A stretch of 27,486 bases of DNA from the NCBI RefSeq assembly GCF_000003605.2, contig NW_003145294.1, positions 158,333 to 185,818 of the forward strand, in the 5' to 3' direction. This stretch comes from Saccoglossus kowalevskii (taxonomy: Eukaryota; Hemichordata; Enteropneusta; Harrimaniidae). The translations under genes were made by a program, and so were the position numbers. This document shows positions 6,301 to 26,839 of this stretch, one piece after another (within the stretch, counting starts at the first letter, position 1; each line of letters starts with the position of its first letter). The notes under the pieces are model-generated. The model searched no databases. It worked only from the letters and a program-made list of their open reading frames with translations, and was not told where the DNA came from.

Positions 6301-8785
6301 TGATTTTTTAGTAGCACATGACATCGAAAAGCAGCAATCTTGAATTGTTGCAATGGTAATAATAATATATATCATATTTATTTTAAGGTATGTCTTATCA
6401 TAACAATTTTTATCATGCCCTCTATTGCACAGAAATGGGAATTCTTCTGATTAAGTGTGAGATTCTTATGAATGTAAATATATAATAAATATAAATATGA
6501 CAGTGATTTATTAGTAGGTGCTGAAGTTACTTCGATCCGCCATGAAGACACTCCTATTCGACATATACTAAAGATATTTTCAAATTAAGAGTAACTATCG
6601 ACATTATTTGTTGACATCGAATCAACACTTTTTTCAAAGTGTTCTTTTTATTGAGTTATAACTAGTAATTTGTAGATGTGGCAATTGACTATCTTTGGAT
6701 CAAGTCCAGGTACAATTAACCAATACTAGTAAAAGAAGAACCCTGTTTCTCATTTGTTACCTGACAAAGTGAGGGCGATTCAAAGCTATTTGCACCAATA
6801 GCAATTGGCGTTACAGAAACGGGTGGCGTGGTTACGAGAAAATAATTGTCCTCGCGACAGGATGGAGTAAAATCCAATGCGCATCTTGTATTGACTAACT
6901 CAATTGTCAGTCTATTTTCTTTCTGATTGAGTAGGTTTTAATATCGCCACAGCCATCAGAATTAACTTAAAGAAACAAATTGGACTGTTTCTCCGGCAAA
7001 ATGACATTTTTATTAGATAAATTAGCTTTGTGAAAACGATGAACTGAAAGCCGAGCCGTAATACGCGTGCGTTTTAGGGCGGAAGGAAAACACTGCGCAT
7101 AGTATTAATACATAAATAGAGGAAAACGTCATTTTCAATCCATAGTTGTATTATCAGAAATACAAAGACAGTATATATAAAGAGCTTTAACATACCTAAT
7201 ACTTATCCATCTGAAAACATTATATTTAATAATTTAAAAGTAATTACTAATCAAATACTAAACATGGCGTCTAGCAAAAATACAATACAGTGATTTAAAA
7301 TATAAGTTCATGCATTTTTCATGTTCAATGTTCTACCTTGTTTCGCTACGTTAGATTCATTTAGTTTACAAAGGCATTCAAGTCTTAACTACGTTGACGC
7401 GGTAAAGAAGACTGCATGACTTTGATAGCGATCTATGGTGTTATCCCGGCCGTGGAGACCTGCGTCATATTTCTGTTGACAATTAAATGCAATGTTTTAA
7501 GTTAGTGCACAGCTGAGTGACCGGCGTTATGTTATAAAATTCACGAATAGTACCGAAGTAAACTCACAGATTGTTCTATTTGGGAAATTATATCCCATAT
7601 CTAATATCTAATTAGTAACTAGTTTGTTGTATGTACATGCACAGCTATAGATAAGAGACACATTGATGAGTAAAAAACATATCTGATCTGATACCAATTA
7701 TTAATCTACCAGCAAAGTTACCACGAGTACGGCAATTGTTTGAAACAACAGAAATAAAAGACGTTAACCACGTTCACTTTTTAGGAAAAATTTCACATTT
7801 GTAACATACTAAATGTCTTCATCGCATTCATGATTTTCTGTCGCACGAGGAATGAAAATTACTTTTTTGATGTCTTATTATCCGGTTTGATAGCTTATCC
7901 TTAACAAGTAAATGCCCACAACTACAGTATAATCTCAGAACAATTAATTGCCAATGACATAGTGGAAGTTGCAGTTATGTTTAATTTGAAGCTCGATCTC
8001 ACTTGACCTTGAGTAATTTATATCCGTTTACTCGGCGGCTATTATGCACGTTTTTCATTGTTCGAACTTATCTGCCATGTACATTTCAATACTCCAACGC
8101 AAAGCTGTATACATGATAACAAGACTATTTGCAGCCGGCGAGGGAGCATCGAGAGAAATTATTCAGATTTGTTGATCATCCCTCAACAGATTGATATGTC
8201 ATTTCTTGTTATGATGAATTCAGTCATGATTATACTCGGTTATCGAATGCTATTAGCGTGTCTTAGTACATCCCCGGGACTGATAAGACATGTTCATCAG
8301 AAGAGAAACAAAAAATAAACGGCGTCGTTCACGACCTAACTATAGTCTGCCTTAAGTGTATATTTGGCACATCATTGCACAATACGTATATTTATTCACA
8401 CGTTATATAGGTGTGTATTAGTTTGTCGTAAACAATTAATGACGTGACAACTGTAATCGCTACAGAAATGAATTAGAAATGAATATTATATTCTTAGAGT
8501 GAACAAAATTTACGCATTTGATTGTAGTAGCTTTTTACACAAGCCATTTCAACTCCATGAATTGTATGTTAATACGCGAAACACCCCAGAGAAACAAATA
8601 TTATTAGAGATTGAGAAAGACAATCTTTAAAAAAAGATATAAAATATAGTAAATACTGAGGATATTGTTCGAGTGTAGAGTGAGAGATAACATATACAAT
8701 GTAATTGCCCGAGAAATACCAATACCAATGTTTTTGACAATAAAGATATTATTCAATAATTATATATTTTTCTTTGGAAGGATGG
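3350..8785. other. AT-rich non-coding DNA
   Basis: No exon or element could be supported. Short ORFs at 4190-4384 and 8058-8318 (one hydrophobic stretch, basic tail) have no recognisable domain. Confidence 0.65.
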
Positions 8786-8855
8786 TACAGTACAGTACAG
8801 TACAGTACAGTACAGTACAGTACAGTACAGTACAGTACAGTACAGTACAGTACAG
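8786..8855. repeat. (TACAG)14 microsatellite
   Basis: Fourteen uninterrupted TACAG pentamers, followed by TACTT. Its perfection points to a young, probably polymorphic array. It is in frame with spurious short ORFs. Confidence 0.97.
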
Positions 8856-9310
8856 TACTTATTTTGAGGATCAAAACGGAATATGAATACCACCGTTTTA
8901 AAAATCAGCTACCTAAATTTGAAACAATTTGGGCAGTGAACGGTGTGTTATGTGACATTCAGAATGATGCACTTCAAATTCATCTGTAATCTGCCACCAT
9001 GGTTTTACTTGTCCACTTCGCTGTTTAGGGCTTTTGCCCTATTGAGCCATAGTTGGTCTTTATGTATCCTTTTTGGTAATTGCTGTGTTAATCCCTGGTT
9101 TCGTGACATTAGTCGTGTCAGAGGATTTTGTTCTTATGGCGGATGTCAGTCTACACACACAAACACTGAATTGCCACCCTCTTGGCTTTTCATTTTCCTC
9201 AACAAACTGAACGCGCGGGTGAACGCGGTGCTTTTCAGCGCTCCCGTATTATTACAGGTTTTGCCTCGCGACTTAGTCGTGTCGGCTTTCAGCTTTAAAA
9301 CATTTTTTTA

Positions 9311-9498
9311 TGTCCTGGGCACGACGTTAAAACTGCATCTGATTGTGGAGTTGTTGTACTTGGGAGAATGAGGTTACCCTTTGCCGCAACTACCTCCAGG
9401 TCACCCTTGGGCAAGGTGTAGCACCTGTCAGCCTTGGGTGCCAACTTCCCACATAATAAGTTTGGTTGACGTCAGTAAAGGCATACGGTCATAGAAAC
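9311..9498. repeat. 185-bp repeat unit, copy A
   Basis: Begins TGTCCTGGGCACGACGTTAA and runs through TTGGGAGAATGAGGTTACCC, CACCCTTGGGCAAGGTGTAG and GTTTGGTTGACGTCAGTAAAG to GGTCATAGAAACC. Relative to copy B it has a 6-bp insert (CACCTG). The CCTGGGCAAGACGTTAA style motif resembles the body of tRNA-derived SINEs of marine invertebrates, but no A/B box promoter was found. Confidence 0.88.
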
Positions 9499-9576
9499 CT
9501 TGCACCAACTCAACCTCACATGTGAGGTATTACCTGATAATGGCAACGTTTACGTTTATTTAAATTTGTATATATT

Positions 9577-9758
9577 TGTCCTGGGTAAGATTTTAAACTA
9601 CATCCGGTTGTGGAGTCTATGGACTTGGGAGAATGAGGTTACCCTTTGTCACAACTACCTCCAGATCACCCTTGGGCAAGGTGTAGTCAGCCTTGGGTTC
9701 CAACTTCCCACGTAATAAGTTTGGTTGACGTCAGTAAGGGCATACGGTCGTAAAATCC
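9577..9758. repeat. 185-bp repeat unit, copy B
   Basis: Second direct copy of the unit at 9311, beginning TGTCCTGGGTAAGATTTTAA, separated from copy A by 78 bp of other sequence. Differences are mostly scattered transitions. Confidence 0.88.
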
Positions 9759-9970
9759 GCATAGGTGGACAATATTTCATGTAAATATATGTATATGTAT
9801 ATGTATGTTTCAGTTTTCCTTAGCATTTGGCAGGGGGTCGTAACCTCTTGTAGTGAGAACCAGTGTGACTGGCCTGTCCACGGGATGTTAAGGTTTTCAT
9901 AGTAAAAGTTATCAGTCACATCCGTTATTGTAATTTCGTTTTTATTTGTCCGTAAATCAAAAATCAAAAG

Positions 9971-10041
9971 TACAGTACAGTACAGTACACTGAATTGCGC
10001 TGCGCTGCGGTGCGCTACGCTACGCTACCCTACGCTACACT
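9971..10041. repeat. (TACAG)3 plus degenerate GCGCT/ACGCT pentamer array
   Basis: Three TACAG units at 9971-9985, then nine pentamers from 9997: GCGCT, GCGCT, GCGGT, GCGCT, ACGCT, ACGCT, ACCCT, ACGCT, ACACT. The stepwise drift from GCGCT to ACGCT shows replication slippage with mutation. Confidence 0.9.
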
Positions 10042-15705: not shown

Positions 15706-16137
15706 GTCATGTTGTCTCATTTAAAACTGTCATGCAATGATTATTTGAAAAGCCGTCAACTGTTTACATAATTGTCACGTAATACACAAAATACATAACC
15801 GTGGTGAAGAAGTTTTCAAATAATAATAAGAAAAATATACTTCTCTTCTTGCTACTTTAATTCTAATATCATATTTCTTGAAACAAAATCACAGACAACT
15901 GAAACAAAATATGAATTTAAAATATAGAGTTCTCAGCAAAAAATGCAACAGCTATGATGTACATATGAATATGTGAGTGAGTTTACAGATGTGAAAATAT
16001 AAGTAGACGTGGTCATGCATTGATTTATAATCATGTTTACAACTGACATTACTTTATGGGTTTATTACTATAGATATGCACAGATTAATCAGGAGAGAAC
16101 AAAACAGCCAAATATCATAATAATGTCAGTTCTCGTA

Positions 16138-16511
16138 ATGTATTGTACAGAACACCTCACTGCGCAATAAATTGTGGAATATTCATAGATATAAATATAA
16201 ATACTATTTTATGTTGTATGTCTATGTTGAATAATAATGTCATGTCTGAATTACTGGCAAGGAACATCACGTACATTTTTCGTTTAAACATCATAAGGGT
16301 TCACCTTAAAATTCATACCAGTAAATGTATTGTACAGAACACCTTACTGCGCAATAAATTGTGGAATATTCATAGATATAAATATAAATACTATTTTATG
16401 TTGTATGTCTATGTTGAATAATAATGTCATGTCTGAATTACTGGCAAGGAACATCACGTACGTTTTTCGTTTAAACATCATAAGGGTTCACCTTAAAATT
16501 CATACCAGTAA
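16138..16511. repeat. Tandem duplication, two 187-bp copies
   Basis: Copies at 16138-16324 and 16325-16511 are in direct orientation with only two differences seen (CACCTCACTG/CACCTTACTG and GTACATTTT/GTACGTTTT). Two overlapping short ORFs here are by-products of the duplication. It is a recent event, or an assembly artefact. Confidence 0.95.
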
Positions 16512-19254
16512 ATCTGTAATATTAATTGTTTATATTGGAAAATAATAAGGGAGACACTTATCAAATCAAGGCAGATGTAGTTATTTGTTGGCTGACATGA
16601 TGCCTTTCTCTCCACTTCAATATAAGTTCAATATGTTTAGTTCGCTGGGTTAATTACGCAAAACTTGATTATTGCGTACTGTTGCTGTTGAGTATGTCAA
16701 TGGTTAATTACGTTTAGATACAGCAGCGTACTGCATTATAGCAGCAGGGTAGAATCGACAACACTCCATTAGTGCGAACAGAACAGATAGATTGATGAGA
16801 TCGAATACACTGCAATACATGGTACGAATACAAAAGCAAAGTAAATCGAACCAGGGATGACATCACGTTTTGCGGCTTCTTGATACACCATGCAGGTACT
16901 TTGATTATTACATGTGCTCGGAGCCCATGCAAATATGTTCAATTTCTAGAACCATGTACGGTTAAGTTACACGCCACCTGTTATCGTCTAGTTAATTGTT
17001 ATTTCCTATGACTTCTGGTCGGCAGTGGCAAAGTTTCAGAATCATTCTTCAGCCAAATAAAAATTAACTACGGTTATCACAAATAATCCACACAATGTTC
17101 GTGCATCTCGTTGAATATAAAAACACTGTTTTATTTGATTTACACTGACAGTTTTTCGTCAATCATAGTTGCCAACAATATCTATTACCTTAGAATCTTT
17201 CGTGAAAAAATTAAGCTATTTTTCGTTATGTTCTTACAGAGTCTATATATGTAACGAGAAGTCATTCGGCGACCTTAATGAGGTGTAATCATTACGCCGT
17301 ATCTTATATCAATATCCTAAACACGAACTATTCAATACTATTTGTTTGTGTATTCATAAAAACACGTTGCGTGAATGTATCAAACTGCAATTTACTTGAC
17401 AGCATAAGTGTGATGACAATTATCGAACTTGGAATATGACCTCCAAATACCTTGAGACTACTTCCTAATTATCATTCCAACTAGTGGTCTATTATTCAGG
17501 ACTGCGAATTACTTCGTTAACGTGTAATGTCGAATTTGTGATTCACCGCCAACATGACCAGCAAGTAAAATCGCGCAGATCAAGATATTTTTAAAAGCAC
17601 GATGTGTCTCTAGCGGGCGCTTTAATCAATATATTATATTAACTGTCAATTCTTCTCAGATATTATGCACAATAACTCACATTCTTGCAATGCAGGATAT
17701 TTTGTAGATAATTTTGATTCGCAATTTTTTTTATTTATTGGAGAATATAATGAAATTGTTGTTTAAGGAAGCATACCCCTATATTTTCTTTTTCTTACCC
17801 TCTTCAAATATAAACTTCTATATTCTCTTTTATAGTGGTATGAATACTAAATCGCAGTTACTTCATGATAACCGCGTTGTACATACTCTCAATATACTCG
17901 TATATATCTTATATCTATACTAATATATTTGTATCTTCGAATCGTCTAGTATTGGAATGTATGTAAACACACGATGGCGCTCTTTCATCTCAAATTGCCA
18001 TTATTTTGCTGCCACGATATATTTGTAAAATGTTGACAGAATGTAACATCAATATGTTATTTGGAAGACAAAATAGAGAACATTTTATTTTTAATAATTC
18101 GTGGGTGCTGAATTTGAAAACTGAGACATGTAGTCGTTTGGTGATTATAATAAATCCCGATTATAAACTGCTTGTTAGTTTAGATTGAAAATAAGAACAT
18201 GGTTAATAACTAAAAACTAATTTGACATATTGTTTTTGACCTATTTACGTTTCTGTATAGTTCGGGAGTCTTGAATCTAAGGTATATGAATAACAATATG
18301 TGCAACTTATAACTACTAATTGTCACATAATATATCCCATACACACAACGAAACAGTCTCAGTTACCATGAATTAGAGATGTAGTACATGAAGTAAACGT
18401 CCGGTTTATTTTAGCCCATCACGTGACGATGACATATTGAGGCAGCAACTTAATAAATATAGTCATTTATTTGTTGACAACTTTAGTTTGGACTATGCAA
18501 ATGATTTTAATCGACTTGCTGATTGCGATAAATAGTCACATTCATTTTGAATCAATTCGTATCACAGCAGGGATGGGCAAGGCAATTCAACTCAACTGAA
18601 ATGAATTTATTGTGTCTATTAAGTTATACTCAGTCATGTGAAACCAAGTATTATGGCTGGTAGTGATAGAAAGAAAACTAAAATTCTTATAAATCCCGGT
18701 TTCTGATGACAGAACGCTTCTGTGACGTGATCATTACGTATAAGGATGAAGACAGTGTCGTTTCAATCGACAACTGAGTCTGTTTTCATAGTCGTTTATC
18801 ATCTAAAGTTTTGCAAAATCATAATCTTCATTCATGGACGACTACAGATCAAAACGATATTGATGTTTTGAACGTCTCTCATGTCACCAATTCACGCTTT
18901 GTCAATAGAGGGCGCATTCTACAGGAACGGTGTAATCTCATCGTTTTATCGATATAATTCCTAAAAACGGAATTAGCATATCTCAGTCTCTAAAGTGGTT
19001 GATGTGGCTATTTAATGTCAAGTTGAATCTGATGAGTCAAATGTTACCAAATTGAATTGGTGAGCAAATGTGCTAAATTGTGAAGGATCGGGAAGAGCAA
19101 ATCCATCATGCATAAGTCGAGTTGTTTTCTGACATTGAGGACTAGATGAATAAGCTGGAATTACAGGGAATACAAATGTCCTGACAAGGCATGGGGTTAC
19201 TCTAGCCAGGTTTGGTGCCATCATCCAATCAAGTATTCAATTAATCAATCAATC
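16512..19254. other. AT-rich non-coding DNA
   Basis: Nothing recognisable except the repeat copy at 17488-17552. The ORF at 19018-19224 minus was tested as an alternative last exon and rejected. Confidence 0.6.
17488..17552. repeat. Dispersed repeat copy A
   Basis: Partner of 20079-20148. Both contain GTCTATT, then TCAGGACTG and GTAATGTCGAATTTG with a few substitutions. No terminal inverted repeats were seen, so this may be a fragment of a longer decayed element. Confidence 0.6.
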
Positions 19255-19654: not shown

Positions 19655-19660
19655 TTTATT
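19655..19660 (-). terminator. Polyadenylation signal AATAAA of the SMB-VWD gene
   Basis: A canonical AATAAA on the minus strand about 160 nt after the TAG at 19819. Cleavage is expected around 19630-19645, and a GT-containing stretch (GAGGTCGTTGTAATTCTGTT) lies just downstream. This implies a short 3' UTR. Confidence 0.65.
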
Positions 19661-19818: not shown

Positions 19819-19834
19819 CTACATGAAGTCACAT
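19819..19834 (-). other. Coding exon 6: 16-nt terminal coding segment
   Basis: The acceptor is a T-rich tract ending TTTTTTGTAG at 19835. The first A completes the split codon GA|A (E309), then Cys-Asp-Phe-Met and TAG. C310 lies seven residues after W303, close to the W-to-C spacing that ends VWD domains (WKVSSQC in VWF). The polyadenylation signal follows at a normal distance. Confidence 0.72.
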
Positions 19835-22535
19835 CTACAAAAAACAAGACAATACACATTATTTAGAGTCGAATGTGAAACGTTACTGCAGTCGTTGTTT
19901 TAAATGTGTATAATTATTTGTATACAGTGTCACATTAATAATAGATGAGACAACAGAGAGTGCGAGGTCAGATGTAAGTGTATTTCAGAGTGTCATTTTC
20001 AGTCATGCTTGCTAATTAATTTGTCTGATTTGTCTACGAAATGGAATGTTTCAAAGGAAAACATAAATGTATTCATTTGTCTATTTTTCAGGACTGTGAA
20101 ATACTTTGTTTACGCGTAATGTCGAATTTGCAATTACATTCTACGCCAATTTTAATATCTAAGACTATCGCACCTCGATGAAAGTGCCATAAAACAATTT
20201 AAAACAAAACTGCACTTACTCTTTTCCTTCAACTTTCCAGCTATAGCCAAACTCGTCAACGGTATGTGCGGGGGTGCCATCAGGTTTTCTAAAGTCATTG
20301 TGGACATTTCCATCAGCATTACCCAACATACCGCATAGTTTACCCTCGTAATCAGTACCGATAATAGAGGTATCTACGACGTGTTTCTTAAGGGTCCATT
20401 TTATAGTGAACGTTGTTTGCTTCGATGTGAAGCTCGCTAGAAACATATTCCCATCCTGTTGGATCTGTATTTCCCTTTTTGCAGTCGCACTTCCTGCAAT
20501 ATTCTATGGAATAAAAATTAACGGGTTTAACAAATTGTATTTAATTAAACATAATACTCGTTATATAAACGCATGAACAAATTCTTTTAACATACTTGAC
20601 AGACTGAATGTTGTCTTATCGAATATATCGCAATGTCTAGTGATTTGACTATTTCGGTTGTAATGAGTATTTCAAAGAAAATTACGTCAGTGAGTTATTT
20701 GCTAATTGAAGTGAACTTTGAATTTTATTATTATGACCCTTATTTGTAGGTGCAGTGAGTAAAGGAAAATATACTAGCAACAAGTGCAATACCAAAAATC
20801 GATTATTAAATGCTGATCCATTTAGTGTTCCATTATTAATTTGACAAAATAGCAATGTCAGGTTTAAACTCACCGTTATAACGTCTAGACCATCAATATA
20901 TGCAGATTCCCCTCCAACAGTGATGTTAATGGCAACCGTTCTGGTTCTTATGTTTTCAGGAGTGCTATCAGCTCTCGGCCCAAATTTAGCAGTGACTTCA
21001 AACGCATGTTTTGGGGTGCAGTCTTTAAACAGAGTATACCAACACAAGCCCATAAACGTGTATGGACGACCATCGAATGTTCTCATGTGTGGATCGCCTG
21101 ATACAACTGGTGGCTTAGTTGTCGGAGGCTCAGTTGTCGGGGGCTCAGTTGTTGGTGGCTTAGTTGTCGGAGGCTCAGTTGTTGGTGGCTTAGTTGTCGG
21201 AGGCTCAGTTGTTGGTGGCTTAGTTGTCGGAGGCTCAGTTGTTGGTGGCTCAGTTGTTGCTATTCACAGATACGAATTTGAACATATATTAATATATCTA
21301 TCTATATCATCCCAGTGTACATATATATACAAGATATGTCACATAAACTCAAGGCAGCATAGTAAATATAATTTTTTGGGGAAAGAGAGAACACACGCGA
21401 TAGGAATACGAAGAAGTGAACCAATACAAATTGTGAAGATTGGTTTCATAATGAGACACAATAAAATCTACCCGTAAAATAACTGTTTTACACAAGAATA
21501 TTACAAATAGATTAAAAAAGTAAATCGGAGCATATCTAAATTTATAATATATAAACTGATCTATTGATCTTCGAAGCGCCTGGTAAAGTCCTATCTATTG
21601 TTAACTCACTGAAATAATAGAATCAGTACTTACGGGGGCAATACGTCCAATAATCATCGCAACATACGTAGTATTTTACGCATCTTGGACAGCAATAACA
21701 ATTCCCATTACTTTGGCCACCACACATATTATAACACGAGCCATCTAGAGGTAATATATAGTTTTACTTTAGTGGTAGTACGCCATTACAAATACGAATA
21801 ATAACACTTCCTATACAACATATACCTTCGTACATGAGAAACTGAAAGCGTTATATGTCACAAAGGAAAAGTTCGACGCGTGCACATGATGAAATGGAAA
21901 CTCAGATATTTTATATTTTTTGTTCAGCACTACATAATAACTAATTTAACGATGAAAACTGACTGAACTTACATAGTGAAGTGTAAGTGCCTTGTGCTAA
22001 TGCCAGCTCCGTCTCGAGCATACTAATATCAAGCTCGTCAGCCGTCTGTCGCTGTAGCAAAACAAAAACAAAAATAGAAATGTTTTTCCCCAATACTGTC
22101 AGTGGTAAACCCAACTTATGAACTCAGTGAAAACATGCTCTCTAAAGAGCCCATTTTTAGTATATATACTAGAAACAGACAGAAGTACATTATCATACTT
22201 AAGTTACCAAACACCGTTATATCCGATCGACTACACACCTTCACCTTCTTCCCAAGTAAAAAGATGCATTAATGTTGCCGAGTTTTACTTCACATCACAC
22301 GTACAATCGCCCTTGTATCAGCGTTATGTAACTGATCCGTAAAATGGTAGTTAAATATTTCAATATGTTCACAAAAATGCCGGTAATTTAAAGTATACAG
22401 AATTTGTTTCGGTAAATTAAAGACGGTCGAACGATTGTGCTATCGTTCTAGCCTTAGTTGTTAACTTACCTCGGTTAGCCCAGCAGCGACCAGAGTAAGA
22501 CTCGCCAATAAAAAGAGCAATACGAAACGTAACAT
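19819..22535 (-). CDS. Secreted somatomedin-B / VWD domain protein, 6 coding exons, 313 aa
   Basis: Coding exons (minus strand): 22535-22470, 22051-21973, 21744-21634, 21259-20874, 20503-20220 and 19834-19819. All introns are GT-AG, with phases 0, 1, 1, 0, 2, and the coding sum is 942 nt. Residues 1-18 form a signal peptide (MLRFVLLFLLASLTLVAA), and 23-48 an acidic spacer. Residues 50-84 fit the SMB signature C-x-C-x3-C-x5-CC-x-D-Y-x3-C. Residues 87-136 are ten TTEPP/TTKPP units, likely O-glycosylated. Residues 140-310 are a VWD domain: GDPHMRTFDG, GLCWYTLFKDC, the loop CGMLGNADGNVHNDF (probable Ca2+ site) and FGYSWKVEGKEC. One N-glycosylation sequon is N197-I-T. The last exon encodes only the end of E309, then C-D-F-M and stop; it has a strong pyrimidine tract and supplies the closing VWD cysteine. 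Inferred role: secreted matrix or mucus protein. SUSD2 also joins SMB with VWD, but this is much shorter and has no membrane anchor. The function is unknown; the gene model is well supported internally. Confidence 0.9.
20079..20148. repeat. Dispersed repeat copy B, inside intron 5
   Basis: Shares a roughly 50-bp core with 17488-17552 in the same orientation, including TCAGGACTG and TAATGTCGAATTTG, then diverges with small gaps near CGCCAA. Family unknown. Confidence 0.6.
20220..20503 (-). other. Coding exon 5: second half of VWD
   Basis: 284 nt, acceptor TTCCATAG, donor GTAAGT, phase 0 in and phase 2 out, residues 215-309. It contains the C-G-x-x-G-N Ca2+-loop motif (C271, G272, G275, N276, then N283-D284-F285) and the terminal FGYSWKV block, which matches the end of VWD domains in von Willebrand factor. 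Confidence 0.9.
20874..21259 (-). other. Coding exon 4: Thr/Pro linker and first half of VWD
   Basis: 386 nt, acceptor GAATAG, donor GTGAGT, phase 1 in and phase 0 out. It encodes P86, ten pentapeptide repeats (87-136), then the VWD start GDPHMRTFDGRPYTF with cysteines C158 and C166, through residue 214. The opposite strand reads through as a Gly/Val ORF that is only a shadow of the repeat. Confidence 0.9.
21108..21257 (-). repeat. Coding 15-bp minisatellite, ten units (TTEPP/TTKPP)
   Basis: Ten contiguous 15-nt units in frame, each Thr-Thr-Glu/Lys-Pro-Pro. The order of residue 3 is E, E, K, E, K, E, K, E, E, K. Units differ mainly at third positions (CCA CCA, CCT CCG, CCC CCG) and at GAG/AAG. 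An E+K dimer (30 bp) recurs, so it probably grew partly by 30-bp slippage or unequal exchange. Confidence 0.92.
21634..21744 (-). other. Coding exon 3: somatomedin-B domain
   Basis: 111 nt, phase 1 at both ends, encoding one whole SMB module (residues 49-86). Cysteines fall at 52, 56, 64, 66, 67, 70, 76, 77 and 84. Eight match the family's conserved set; C67 (in CYCCPRC) is an extra ninth. SMB is a small disulfide-knotted protein-interaction fold, seen for example in vitronectin, ENPP and SUSD2. Confidence 0.88.
21973..22051 (-). other. Coding exon 2: acidic spacer
   Basis: 79 nt between the acceptor CTACAG and the donor GTAAGT, phase 0 in and phase 1 out. It encodes residues 23-48 (beginning RQTADELDIS), acidic and probably helical, with no cysteine. 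It could be a propeptide or spacer before the SMB module. Confidence 0.82.
22470..22535 (-). other. Coding exon 1: signal peptide
   Basis: Twenty-two codons, from the ATG at 22535 to the donor GAG|GTAAGT. The product has a positive residue at position 3, a Leu/Val/Phe/Ala core and a VAA-G cleavage context. The start is chosen because it is the ATG lying about 80 nt downstream of a TATA box and opens directly into a textbook signal peptide. Confidence 0.88.
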
Positions 22536-22616: not shown

Positions 22617-22640
22617 CTTATAAAGACATTTTATTTGCAT
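22617..22640 (-). promoter_or_regulatory. TATA box with upstream octamer for the SMB-VWD gene
   Basis: On the minus strand TTTATAAG lies at 22624-22617, and the POU/Oct octamer ATGCAAAT at 22640-22633, about 10 bp upstream of it. Transcription would start near 22590, giving a 5' UTR of about 55 nt before the ATG at 22535. An octamer next to TATA is a known arrangement in vertebrate immunoglobulin and H2B promoters. Regulation here is inferred from the motifs only. Confidence 0.55.
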
Positions 22641-23535: not shown

Positions 23536-23748
23536 GAACCAACACGGAATAGTCTGCTGTTATCGCTAACAGTGACATTAAGCCAATGGTGGCTATACAC
23601 AAACACGAATGCACACAGGTAGACAGGATTTACACATCTTTTCATTGGTACAGTATCGATTGTAACTGTTGTGCCACACGTGTTGGGACACAATAACCTC
23701 CCTCGCTTGGTTGACTATACCACAAAGAACCGGACGCAGTCTGAAACA
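23536..23748. repeat. Dispersed repeat copy 1 (about 215 bp)
   Basis: Aligns in the same orientation with 26616-26839. Shared blocks are CAGTGACATTAAGCCAATG, TATACACAAACACGAA, GGTAGACAGGATTTACACAT and CAGTCTGAAAC. No inverted termini or coding potential seen; family unknown. Confidence 0.82.
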
Positions 23749-24780
23749 CACAAAACTAGACATTTATCGTACGTGTATGATTCATGCCAGACACCGTTTG
23801 ATTCGCAAAATATCTCACATGAATTGAAGTGGACGTCATGAAAAAAAGATATAGAAAAATGGCAAAAAATGACAAATCGCGCCATGTAAATATTATTTCA
23901 ACACCTTATGAAGTTAAGACTTAGTCTCATTCGTATGGAATTTTTTTTAAGTTGGTCTTGCTCATCAAGGGACTATTTACAACTTAGTATAAACTATTTT
24001 GGCGCCTCTGATGTCTATAAAAAGGCATTTTTTTGTCATCGTAGTGTGTTTGCTAAAGACAAACCGGTCACTTCAATAGTGGTTTTATATTAGCCTATTT
24101 ATTACCTAAACACGTATGAAATATATGGAGAACCATAATAACTATATTACGTTTGTGCCACTATATTGGTCTCATTAATCACCTATAAATATTAAAATAT
24201 ACAATGTACATATGTCTTCATGTTTTCCTTTTAGAGAGGTCGGCCTCCTGCAAGAAATATTCATAATAATTATGATTGACTTAAGGTACCATCGTGTAGT
24301 GGTTAATTATTATAATTTATTTCTATGTTGAGTGGCCATATTAGAATTTTACCATGTTTAAGTAATTGCTGTTTTGTGTTCGGCCTGCAAACAACACTTG
24401 GACAGCTCAAAAACAACAGATGTGTGCTGAGAAACCAACTGAGGGCGCTACATACACAATAACATCTCGTGTCACCACAAGCGGCGCTCTTGAGTTTGAA
24501 GTTGACCTGTGCACAGGGGGAGTACTCGTAGTCGTATATCGGGTCGTTGAATTATTTAATCCCTGTTTAGATATTCAACACATCCGTGCTAGGTTTAAGG
24601 TTAAATGTGTTAACGTGATTTCAGTCAAATGGCCAACCATGATGAGAGGTAAGTGAAATATACTAGTTATATAATGATAATAACAAAACAAGAAAATAAA
24701 TCAAGTGAAGTGAACCAGTATATCTCCGCTCCTCATGAACTGGATAGTACAATGGCCAGGATCGGTGATAAGGATGAATA
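23749..24780. other. Non-coding DNA with one unassigned ORF
   Basis: An ORF at 24366-24656 ends just after a GTAAGT-like donor and could belong to an unseen plus-strand gene beyond the window, but it has no domain and no partner exon. Confidence 0.5.
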
Positions 24781-26615: not shown

Positions 26616-26839
26616 AGACCAAGACAGAATACTAGTAGTCTGTTATTATCGTCAACAGTGACATTAAGCCAATGATGGGTATACACAAACACGAACAAAC
26701 ACTGATAAGAACCCCGGTAGACAGGATTTACACATCCTTTCGTTGTATTAATTGTAATTATTATGCCACACATGTTGCAACACAATAAATCTCTTTTACT
26801 TGGTTGTCTACCTAAGAGAACCAGTCACAGTCTGAAACC
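26616..26839. repeat. Dispersed repeat copy 2 (about 220 bp)
   Basis: Partner of 23536-23748, about 3 kb away, with scattered substitutions and a small insertion (around CACTGATAAGAACC). The reverse-strand ORF here is a shadow. Confidence 0.82.

What the first reader, a model, noticed from the sequence alone, without database searches (positions are those of the whole stretch)
19819..22535. Compact secreted protein with an SMB - (TTxPP)10 - VWD architecture
Signal peptide, SMB, mucin-like linker and VWD are seen directly, with splice phases consistent over six exons. SUSD2 contains SMB and VWD but also AMOP, sushi and a membrane segment. A 313-residue soluble SMB-linker-VWD protein is unusual and may be a lineage-specific matrix, mucus or adhesive component.
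Basis: partly seen in the sequence, partly recalled or inferred. Interest (0 to 1): 0.75.

Follow-up and report, generated by a model that had tools for sequence, protein, structure and literature searches.

The report
Small secreted SMB-stalk-VWD animal protein
An animal gene with six exons encodes a small secreted protein made of a somatomedin-B-like knot, a mucin-like stalk and one von Willebrand D domain that carries a known self-cutting motif; its parts are familiar, but their compact combination looks unusual.

Summary
The gene is real. VWD is certain (78.5 bits, Pfam cut-off 22.9). SMB keeps eight framework cysteines and finds SUSD2's SMB first among solved structures, but stays below Pfam's cut-off (17.4 and 21.1 against 23.1). 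No AMOP, sushi or second membrane segment was found in the protein.

The VWD carries GDPH (140-143), the Asp-Pro cleavage motif. C158 and C310 match the FCGBP disulfide C4097-C4255, and C310 comes from the 16-nt last exon. There is no cysteine to tie strand 1 to the domain, and the second cysteine of CGLCG is leucine. SMB has a ninth cysteine (C67).

Best reading: a secreted matrix or mucus glycoprotein whose SMB-stalk could be split from the VWD. SUSD2 data argue against cleavage without a tether. Species, expression and animal relatives could not be tested: the genome and structure services did not complete. New variant of a known kind; modest interest.

The parts
22470..22535 (-). Exon 1: start codon and signal peptide (residues 1-22)
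   Evidence: ATG, GTAAGT donor, phase 0; hydropathy maximum 2.28 at residues 2-20
21973..22051 (-). Exon 2: short acidic N-terminal segment (about residues 23-49)
   Evidence: AG acceptor, GTAAGT donor, ends in phase 1
21634..21744 (-). Exon 3: SMB-like module (C52-C84, nine cysteines), with a phase-1 intron on each side
   Evidence: Pfam Somatomedin_B 21.1 bits against cut-off 23.1; SUSD2 SMB 2cqw E 0.026
20874..21259 (-). Exon 4: ten TTxPP units and the first half of VWD with GDPH
   Evidence: Pfam VWD 48.1 bits alone
21108..21257 (-). Coding tandem array, 10 x 15 bp, giving (TTEPP/TTKPP)10
20220..20503 (-). Exon 5: second half of VWD with LCGMLGNADGNVHNDF
   Evidence: Pfam VWD 31.1 bits alone; GTAAGT donor
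19819..19834 (-). Exon 6: 16-nt last coding exon, gives C310, DFM and stop
   Evidence: highest pyrimidine content (0.78) of the 11 acceptors that one search listed down to 18900
22617..22624 (-). TATA-like TTTATAAG, 82-89 bp upstream of the ATG
   Evidence: read in the sequence printed
19655..19660 (-). AATAAA, starting 159 nt past the last base of the stop codon

Best explanation
A functional animal gene for a small secreted extracellular glycoprotein. The signal peptide is removed. The SMB-like knot and a stiff Pro/Thr stalk, which offers 20 threonines for O-glycosylation, are displayed ahead of one stand-alone VWD domain that keeps a calcium-site-like motif (recalled). The VWD is closed by C158-C310, the latter delivered by the 16-nt last exon. 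The GDPH motif (G140-H143) is of the type that is cut, apparently by itself, between Asp and Pro in the secretory pathway. Here it lies right at the end of the stalk, and the usual strand-1 cysteine and its partner are both missing. So cleavage, if it happens, would leave the SMB-stalk held only by strand-1 hydrogen bonds, or free. The ninth SMB cysteine gives an odd total of 13, so at least one thiol is free or linked to another chain, plausibly coupling the SMB part to a second copy or to a mucus or matrix partner. Shown: gene model, domains, motifs, cysteine inventory. Inferred by homology: disulfide pairing, calcium binding, cleavage. Inferred only: O-glycosylation, multimerisation, mucus or matrix role.
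For: Exact six-exon frame and consensus splice sites. VWD 78.5 bits; each half passes on its own. Best solved relatives are FCGBP and VWF VWDs, then MUC5AC/MUC5B. GDPH is present, with the D and H that FCGBP D10 cleavage needs (PMC10880436 section 2.4). FCGBP disulfide C4097-C4255 (passage): C4097 is Asp+17, and C158 is D141+17; C4255 is Asp+175, and C310 is D141+169. CGLCG stands in all 7 distinct FCGBP and VWF domains whose printed alignments cover the site, here LCGML (other matched chains were not printed). VWF D2 has Cys where P136 stands. Nine SMB cysteines, 13 in all.
Against: SMB is below Pfam's cut-off. In SUSD2, C95A, C115A, the double mutant and the mutant without C-terminal cysteines were not cleaved (PMC6696261 section 2.5), so a protein without inter-fragment cysteines may not cleave. 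The SUSD2 authors also infer a serine protease, since Pefabloc lowered cleavage (abstract), so the cut may not always be self-made. At the FCGBP Q4094 position this protein has Met (by offset, Asp+14), and Q4094 mutants cleaved only partly, although three other GDPH-bearing FCGBP domains also show Met there. No expression, glycan or partner data. The pairing of the lost strand-1 cysteine with the second CGLCG cysteine, and of C166 with C271, is recalled, not read.
Confidence: 0.5

Rival explanations
1. Same secreted protein, but it stays in one piece: GDPH is a structural turn only, and the protein acts as an uncleaved SMB-stalk-VWD linker or matrix component.
For: SUSD2 cysteine mutants were not cleaved; [quoted passage not shown] Met at the Q4094 position (and offset).
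Against: D and H of the motif are intact; SUSD2 and FCGBP D10 are cleaved at the motif, MUC4 putatively.
Confidence: 0.35
2. The 313-aa model is one isoform or a fragment of a larger gene (SUSD2-like or a full D assembly), with further exons not recognised here.
For: Exon 5 ends in a strong donor; short exons escape ORF scans; only 17 of the ORFs outside the gene were scanned, out of 144 listed in all.
Against: The 16-nt exon follows the most pyrimidine-rich of the 11 acceptors listed, supplies the expected closing Cys, and AATAAA follows soon after; no Pfam family reached its cut-off in the 17 ORFs; a TATA-like box and a signal peptide mark the 5' end.
Confidence: 0.13
3. A pseudogene or truncated duplicate of a SUSD2- or mucin-type gene.
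For: SMB scores low, two usual VWD cysteines are missing, and the protein is short.
Against: No frameshift or premature stop in 313 codons and all splice sites intact; two of the three variable sites in the 15-bp repeat unit are silent, the third is Glu/Lys; the two missing cysteines are, on recalled pairing, partners.
Confidence: 0.04

Closest known systems
SUSD2 (SMB-AMOP-VWD-sushi type I membrane protein)
   Same: SMB and a GDPH-bearing VWD in one secretory-pathway protein; SMB cysteine spacing alike (2cqw); SUSD2 is cleaved at GDPH
   Different: SUSD2 is 822 aa with AMOP, sushi and a membrane segment and its fragments stay linked by disulfides; here none of these domains was found and there is no usual inter-fragment cysteine pair
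MUC4
   Same: tandem-repeat region upstream of a VWD with GDPH; putative split into a mucin-like alpha and a VWD-bearing beta subunit (passages)
   Different: MUC4 is large and membrane-bound, with NIDO, AMOP and EGF-like domains; no SMB is named there
FCGBP, VWF and gel-forming mucin VWDs
   Same: VWD sequence, GDPH in FCGBP, MUC2 and MUC5AC, closing disulfide of FCGBP D10
   Different: those mostly sit in VWD-C8-TIL-E assemblies; the FCGBP and VWF domains printed keep CGLCG; here a lone VWD without it
Proteoglycan 4 (lubricin), recalled
   Same: SMB and Pro/Thr-rich repeats in a secreted protein
   Different: lubricin ends in hemopexin-like repeats, not VWD; comparison recalled, not run

Membership tests
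VWD domain (Pfam PF00094) | Pfam gathering score | tested here: met
   78.5 bits against 22.9, profile 3-156 of 156
Somatomedin-B domain (Pfam PF01033) | Pfam gathering score | tested here: not met
   17.4 (whole protein) and 21.1 bits (exon alone) against 23.1
Somatomedin-B domain (Pfam PF01033) | eight framework cysteines in SMB spacing | tested here: met
   alignment to SUSD2 SMB 2cqw, 8 of 8; recalled signature pattern matched at 64-84
SUSD2 | SMB plus VWD | tested here: inconclusive
   VWD met; SMB by cysteine pattern only
SUSD2 | AMOP and sushi domains | tested here: not met
   neither among the 5 families at E up to 1 in the 313 aa
SUSD2 | membrane segment | tested here: not met
   hydropathy maximum beyond residue 40 is 0.83
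Gel-forming mucin / VWF / FCGBP D assembly | C8-TIL-E after VWD | tested here: not met
   protein ends three residues after C310; no such family
GDPH-cleaved VWD | GDPH with intact D and H | tested here: met
   140-143
GDPH-cleaved VWD | cleavage between D and P | not testable with these tools
   needs protein
GDPH-cleaved VWD, FCGBP type | cysteine pair that ties strand 1 to the domain | tested here: not met
   no cysteine between C84 and C158; second CGLCG cysteine is Leu; which two pair is recalled

The most novel reading that the evidence does not exclude
A self-splitting secreted protein: GDPH cleavage at the stalk-VWD border, without the usual strand-1 disulfide, releases an SMB-tipped, O-glycosylated stalk that multimerises through its ninth SMB cysteine while the VWD remains as a separate calcium-binding unit. 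This would be one precursor yielding two extracellular components.
Probability: 0.2. Interest if true: 0.5.

Novelty: new variant of a known kind. Interest (0 to 1): 0.3.

Why it matters
The purpose of GDPH cleavage in VWD domains is said not to have been revealed (PMC10880436 Discussion). A small, soluble, two-domain natural protein that has the motif but not the tethering cysteines would let the question be tested cleanly: does cutting need the tether, and does the first strand then leave?

Tried and rejected
Relatives: one scan of viral contigs with the 313 aa gave no relative; genome contigs (bacteria and archaea) was not scanned. Further domains: 17 ORFs outside the gene, of 144 stop-to-stop ORFs listed in all, were scanned against Pfam; 5 of the 17 gave weak matches, none at its cut-off. 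In the protein itself Extensin_1 (42.9 bits, cut-off 105; the Pro repeats), Transposase_23 and DUF7437 also appear below their cut-offs. Second copies: tblastn of the protein against the window found five of its six own exons (the 16-nt one is too short) plus one chance hit, E 4.6. RNA genes: none at the default settings. Alternative last exons: 11 acceptors listed; the one at 20173 would also give a Cys (ECDSLRY) but leaves a 46-nt intron, so it is less likely, not excluded. If intron 5 is kept, an in-frame TAA inside the donor ends the protein after E309, without C310 (sequence).

Literature: 10 searches were answered. Those pairing SMB or somatomedin with VWD gave mostly SUSD2 papers or unrelated ones; one search gave none, (with 'mollus') one on astacins; one search listed 30 of 36 papers, none of those 30 with the phrase 'SMB domain'. 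Nine papers were opened: PMC10880436 (abstract, passages, sections 2.4, 2.7, Discussion), PMC6696261 (abstract, Introduction, sections 2.1, 2.5), and by passages PMC11933400, PMC8660890, PMC11237159, PMC9080433, PMC7037938, PMC6739602, PMC10082768. The sea-anemone mucin and sea-urchin adhesive papers do not hold the words somatomedin or SMB in their main text.

Full report
What was checked. The finding places a six-exon gene on the minus strand at 22535-19819. The SMB exon has a phase-1 intron on each side, as is usual for exchangeable extracellular modules (recalled). A TATA-like box lies 82-89 bp before the ATG, and AATAAA starts at 19660, 159 nt past the stop.

Domains. Pfam gives VWD at 78.5 bits over residues 138-291, covering 3-156 of the 156-position profile. 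Its two halves sit on different exons, and each exceeds the cut-off alone (48.1 and 31.1 bits). The Somatomedin_B model scores 17.4 bits in the full protein and 21.1 for the exon alone, below its cut-off of 23.1. Against that, the exon alone finds the SUSD2 SMB (2cqw) first, E 0.026, the only SMB among six hits at E up to 10, with all eight framework cysteines aligned; the other five are zinc-finger and E6 chains at E 0.15 to 6.3. The recalled SMB signature matches at 64-84 and is met by 35 of 2,000,000 shuffles of the same residues. The low score goes with a ninth cysteine (C67), which takes the place of the Asp usual after the C-x-C (recalled); SUSD2 has His there. Ten TTxPP units follow. 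Their DNA units vary at three sites: two silent and one Glu/Lys.

The VWD begins SGDPH. FCGBP, MUC2, MUC5AC, BMPER, RGM proteins, MUC4 and SUSD2 are reported to be cut, or putatively cut, between Asp and Pro of this motif (PMC10880436, passages and sections; PMC8660890 passages; PMC6696261 section 2.1). FCGBP D10 needs the Asp and the His; both are here. The FCGBP paper names a disulfide C4097-C4255. Counting from the motif's Asp, C4097 is +17 and so is C158 here. C4255 is +175, and C310, from the 16-nt last exon, is +169. The tiny exon therefore looks like the supplier of the domain's closing cysteine, which makes its reality more likely.

Missing tether. The same paper says that in some cleaved VWDs the first strand stays attached by a disulfide, while in others the disulfide is lacking and the protein could fragment. 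Here no cysteine lies between C84 and C158. The second cysteine of CGLCG, present in all 7 distinct FCGBP and VWF domains whose printed alignments cover the site, is Leu, and VWF D2 has Cys where P136 stands. From recalled VWF D3 pairing these two are partners, so the loss looks concerted. That leaves four VWD cysteines (two pairs) and nine in SMB, 13 in all: an odd number.

Evidence against release. In SUSD2 the mutants C95A, C115A, both together, and one without C-terminal cysteines were not cleaved. If that need for cysteines is general, this protein would stay whole. The SUSD2 authors suggest a serine protease, since Pefabloc lowered cleavage (abstract), and their GEPH and GDAH mutants were still cut, so the motif may not always act by itself. 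Recombinant MUC2 with GDPH was uncleaved from CHO cells and needed acid. Met stands where FCGBP D10 has Q4094, whose mutants cleaved partly. I therefore hold cleavage at about even odds and release at about one in five.

Family. It shares SMB and a GDPH VWD with SUSD2 but fails the AMOP, sushi and membrane tests, so it is not filed as SUSD2. It fails the D-assembly test of mucins, VWF and FCGBP. It works most like a minimal secreted counterpart of the MUC4 or SUSD2 plan: a stalk followed by a VWD with a cleavage motif.

Limits. No animal database, species name, transcript or structure could be reached: ten requests for the host genome and five for a fold did not complete (listed in Tried and rejected). 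Rarity rests only on ten answered searches of an open-access library, of which one carried 'mollus' and two 'invertebrate' as terms, and cannot be claimed. Interest is set at 0.3: a clean, real gene with a compact architecture that may be uncommon, and one testable idea.

Noticed in passing
window 16137-16513: Near-exact tandem duplication of about 187 bp (98% matches, two copies).
   Followed up: no
window 8785-8858: Perfect pentanucleotide array (GTACA) x14.8; a short run of the same motif recurs at 9970-9989.
   Followed up: no
window 9311-9499 and 9577-9758: Two 86% identical direct copies of about 189 bp in the most G+C-rich kilobase of the profile.
   Followed up: no
window 23550-23747 and 26636-26838: Dispersed repeat, 75% identical over 211 aligned positions, possibly a family of short mobile elements.
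   Followed up: no
window 17487-17538 and 20079-20130: 52-bp repeat, 88% identical; the second copy lies in intron 5 of the gene.
   Followed up: no
window 24629-24648: ATGGCCAACCATGATGAGAG followed by GTAAGTG on the plus strand: possible first coding exon of a divergent neighbouring gene.
   Followed up: no
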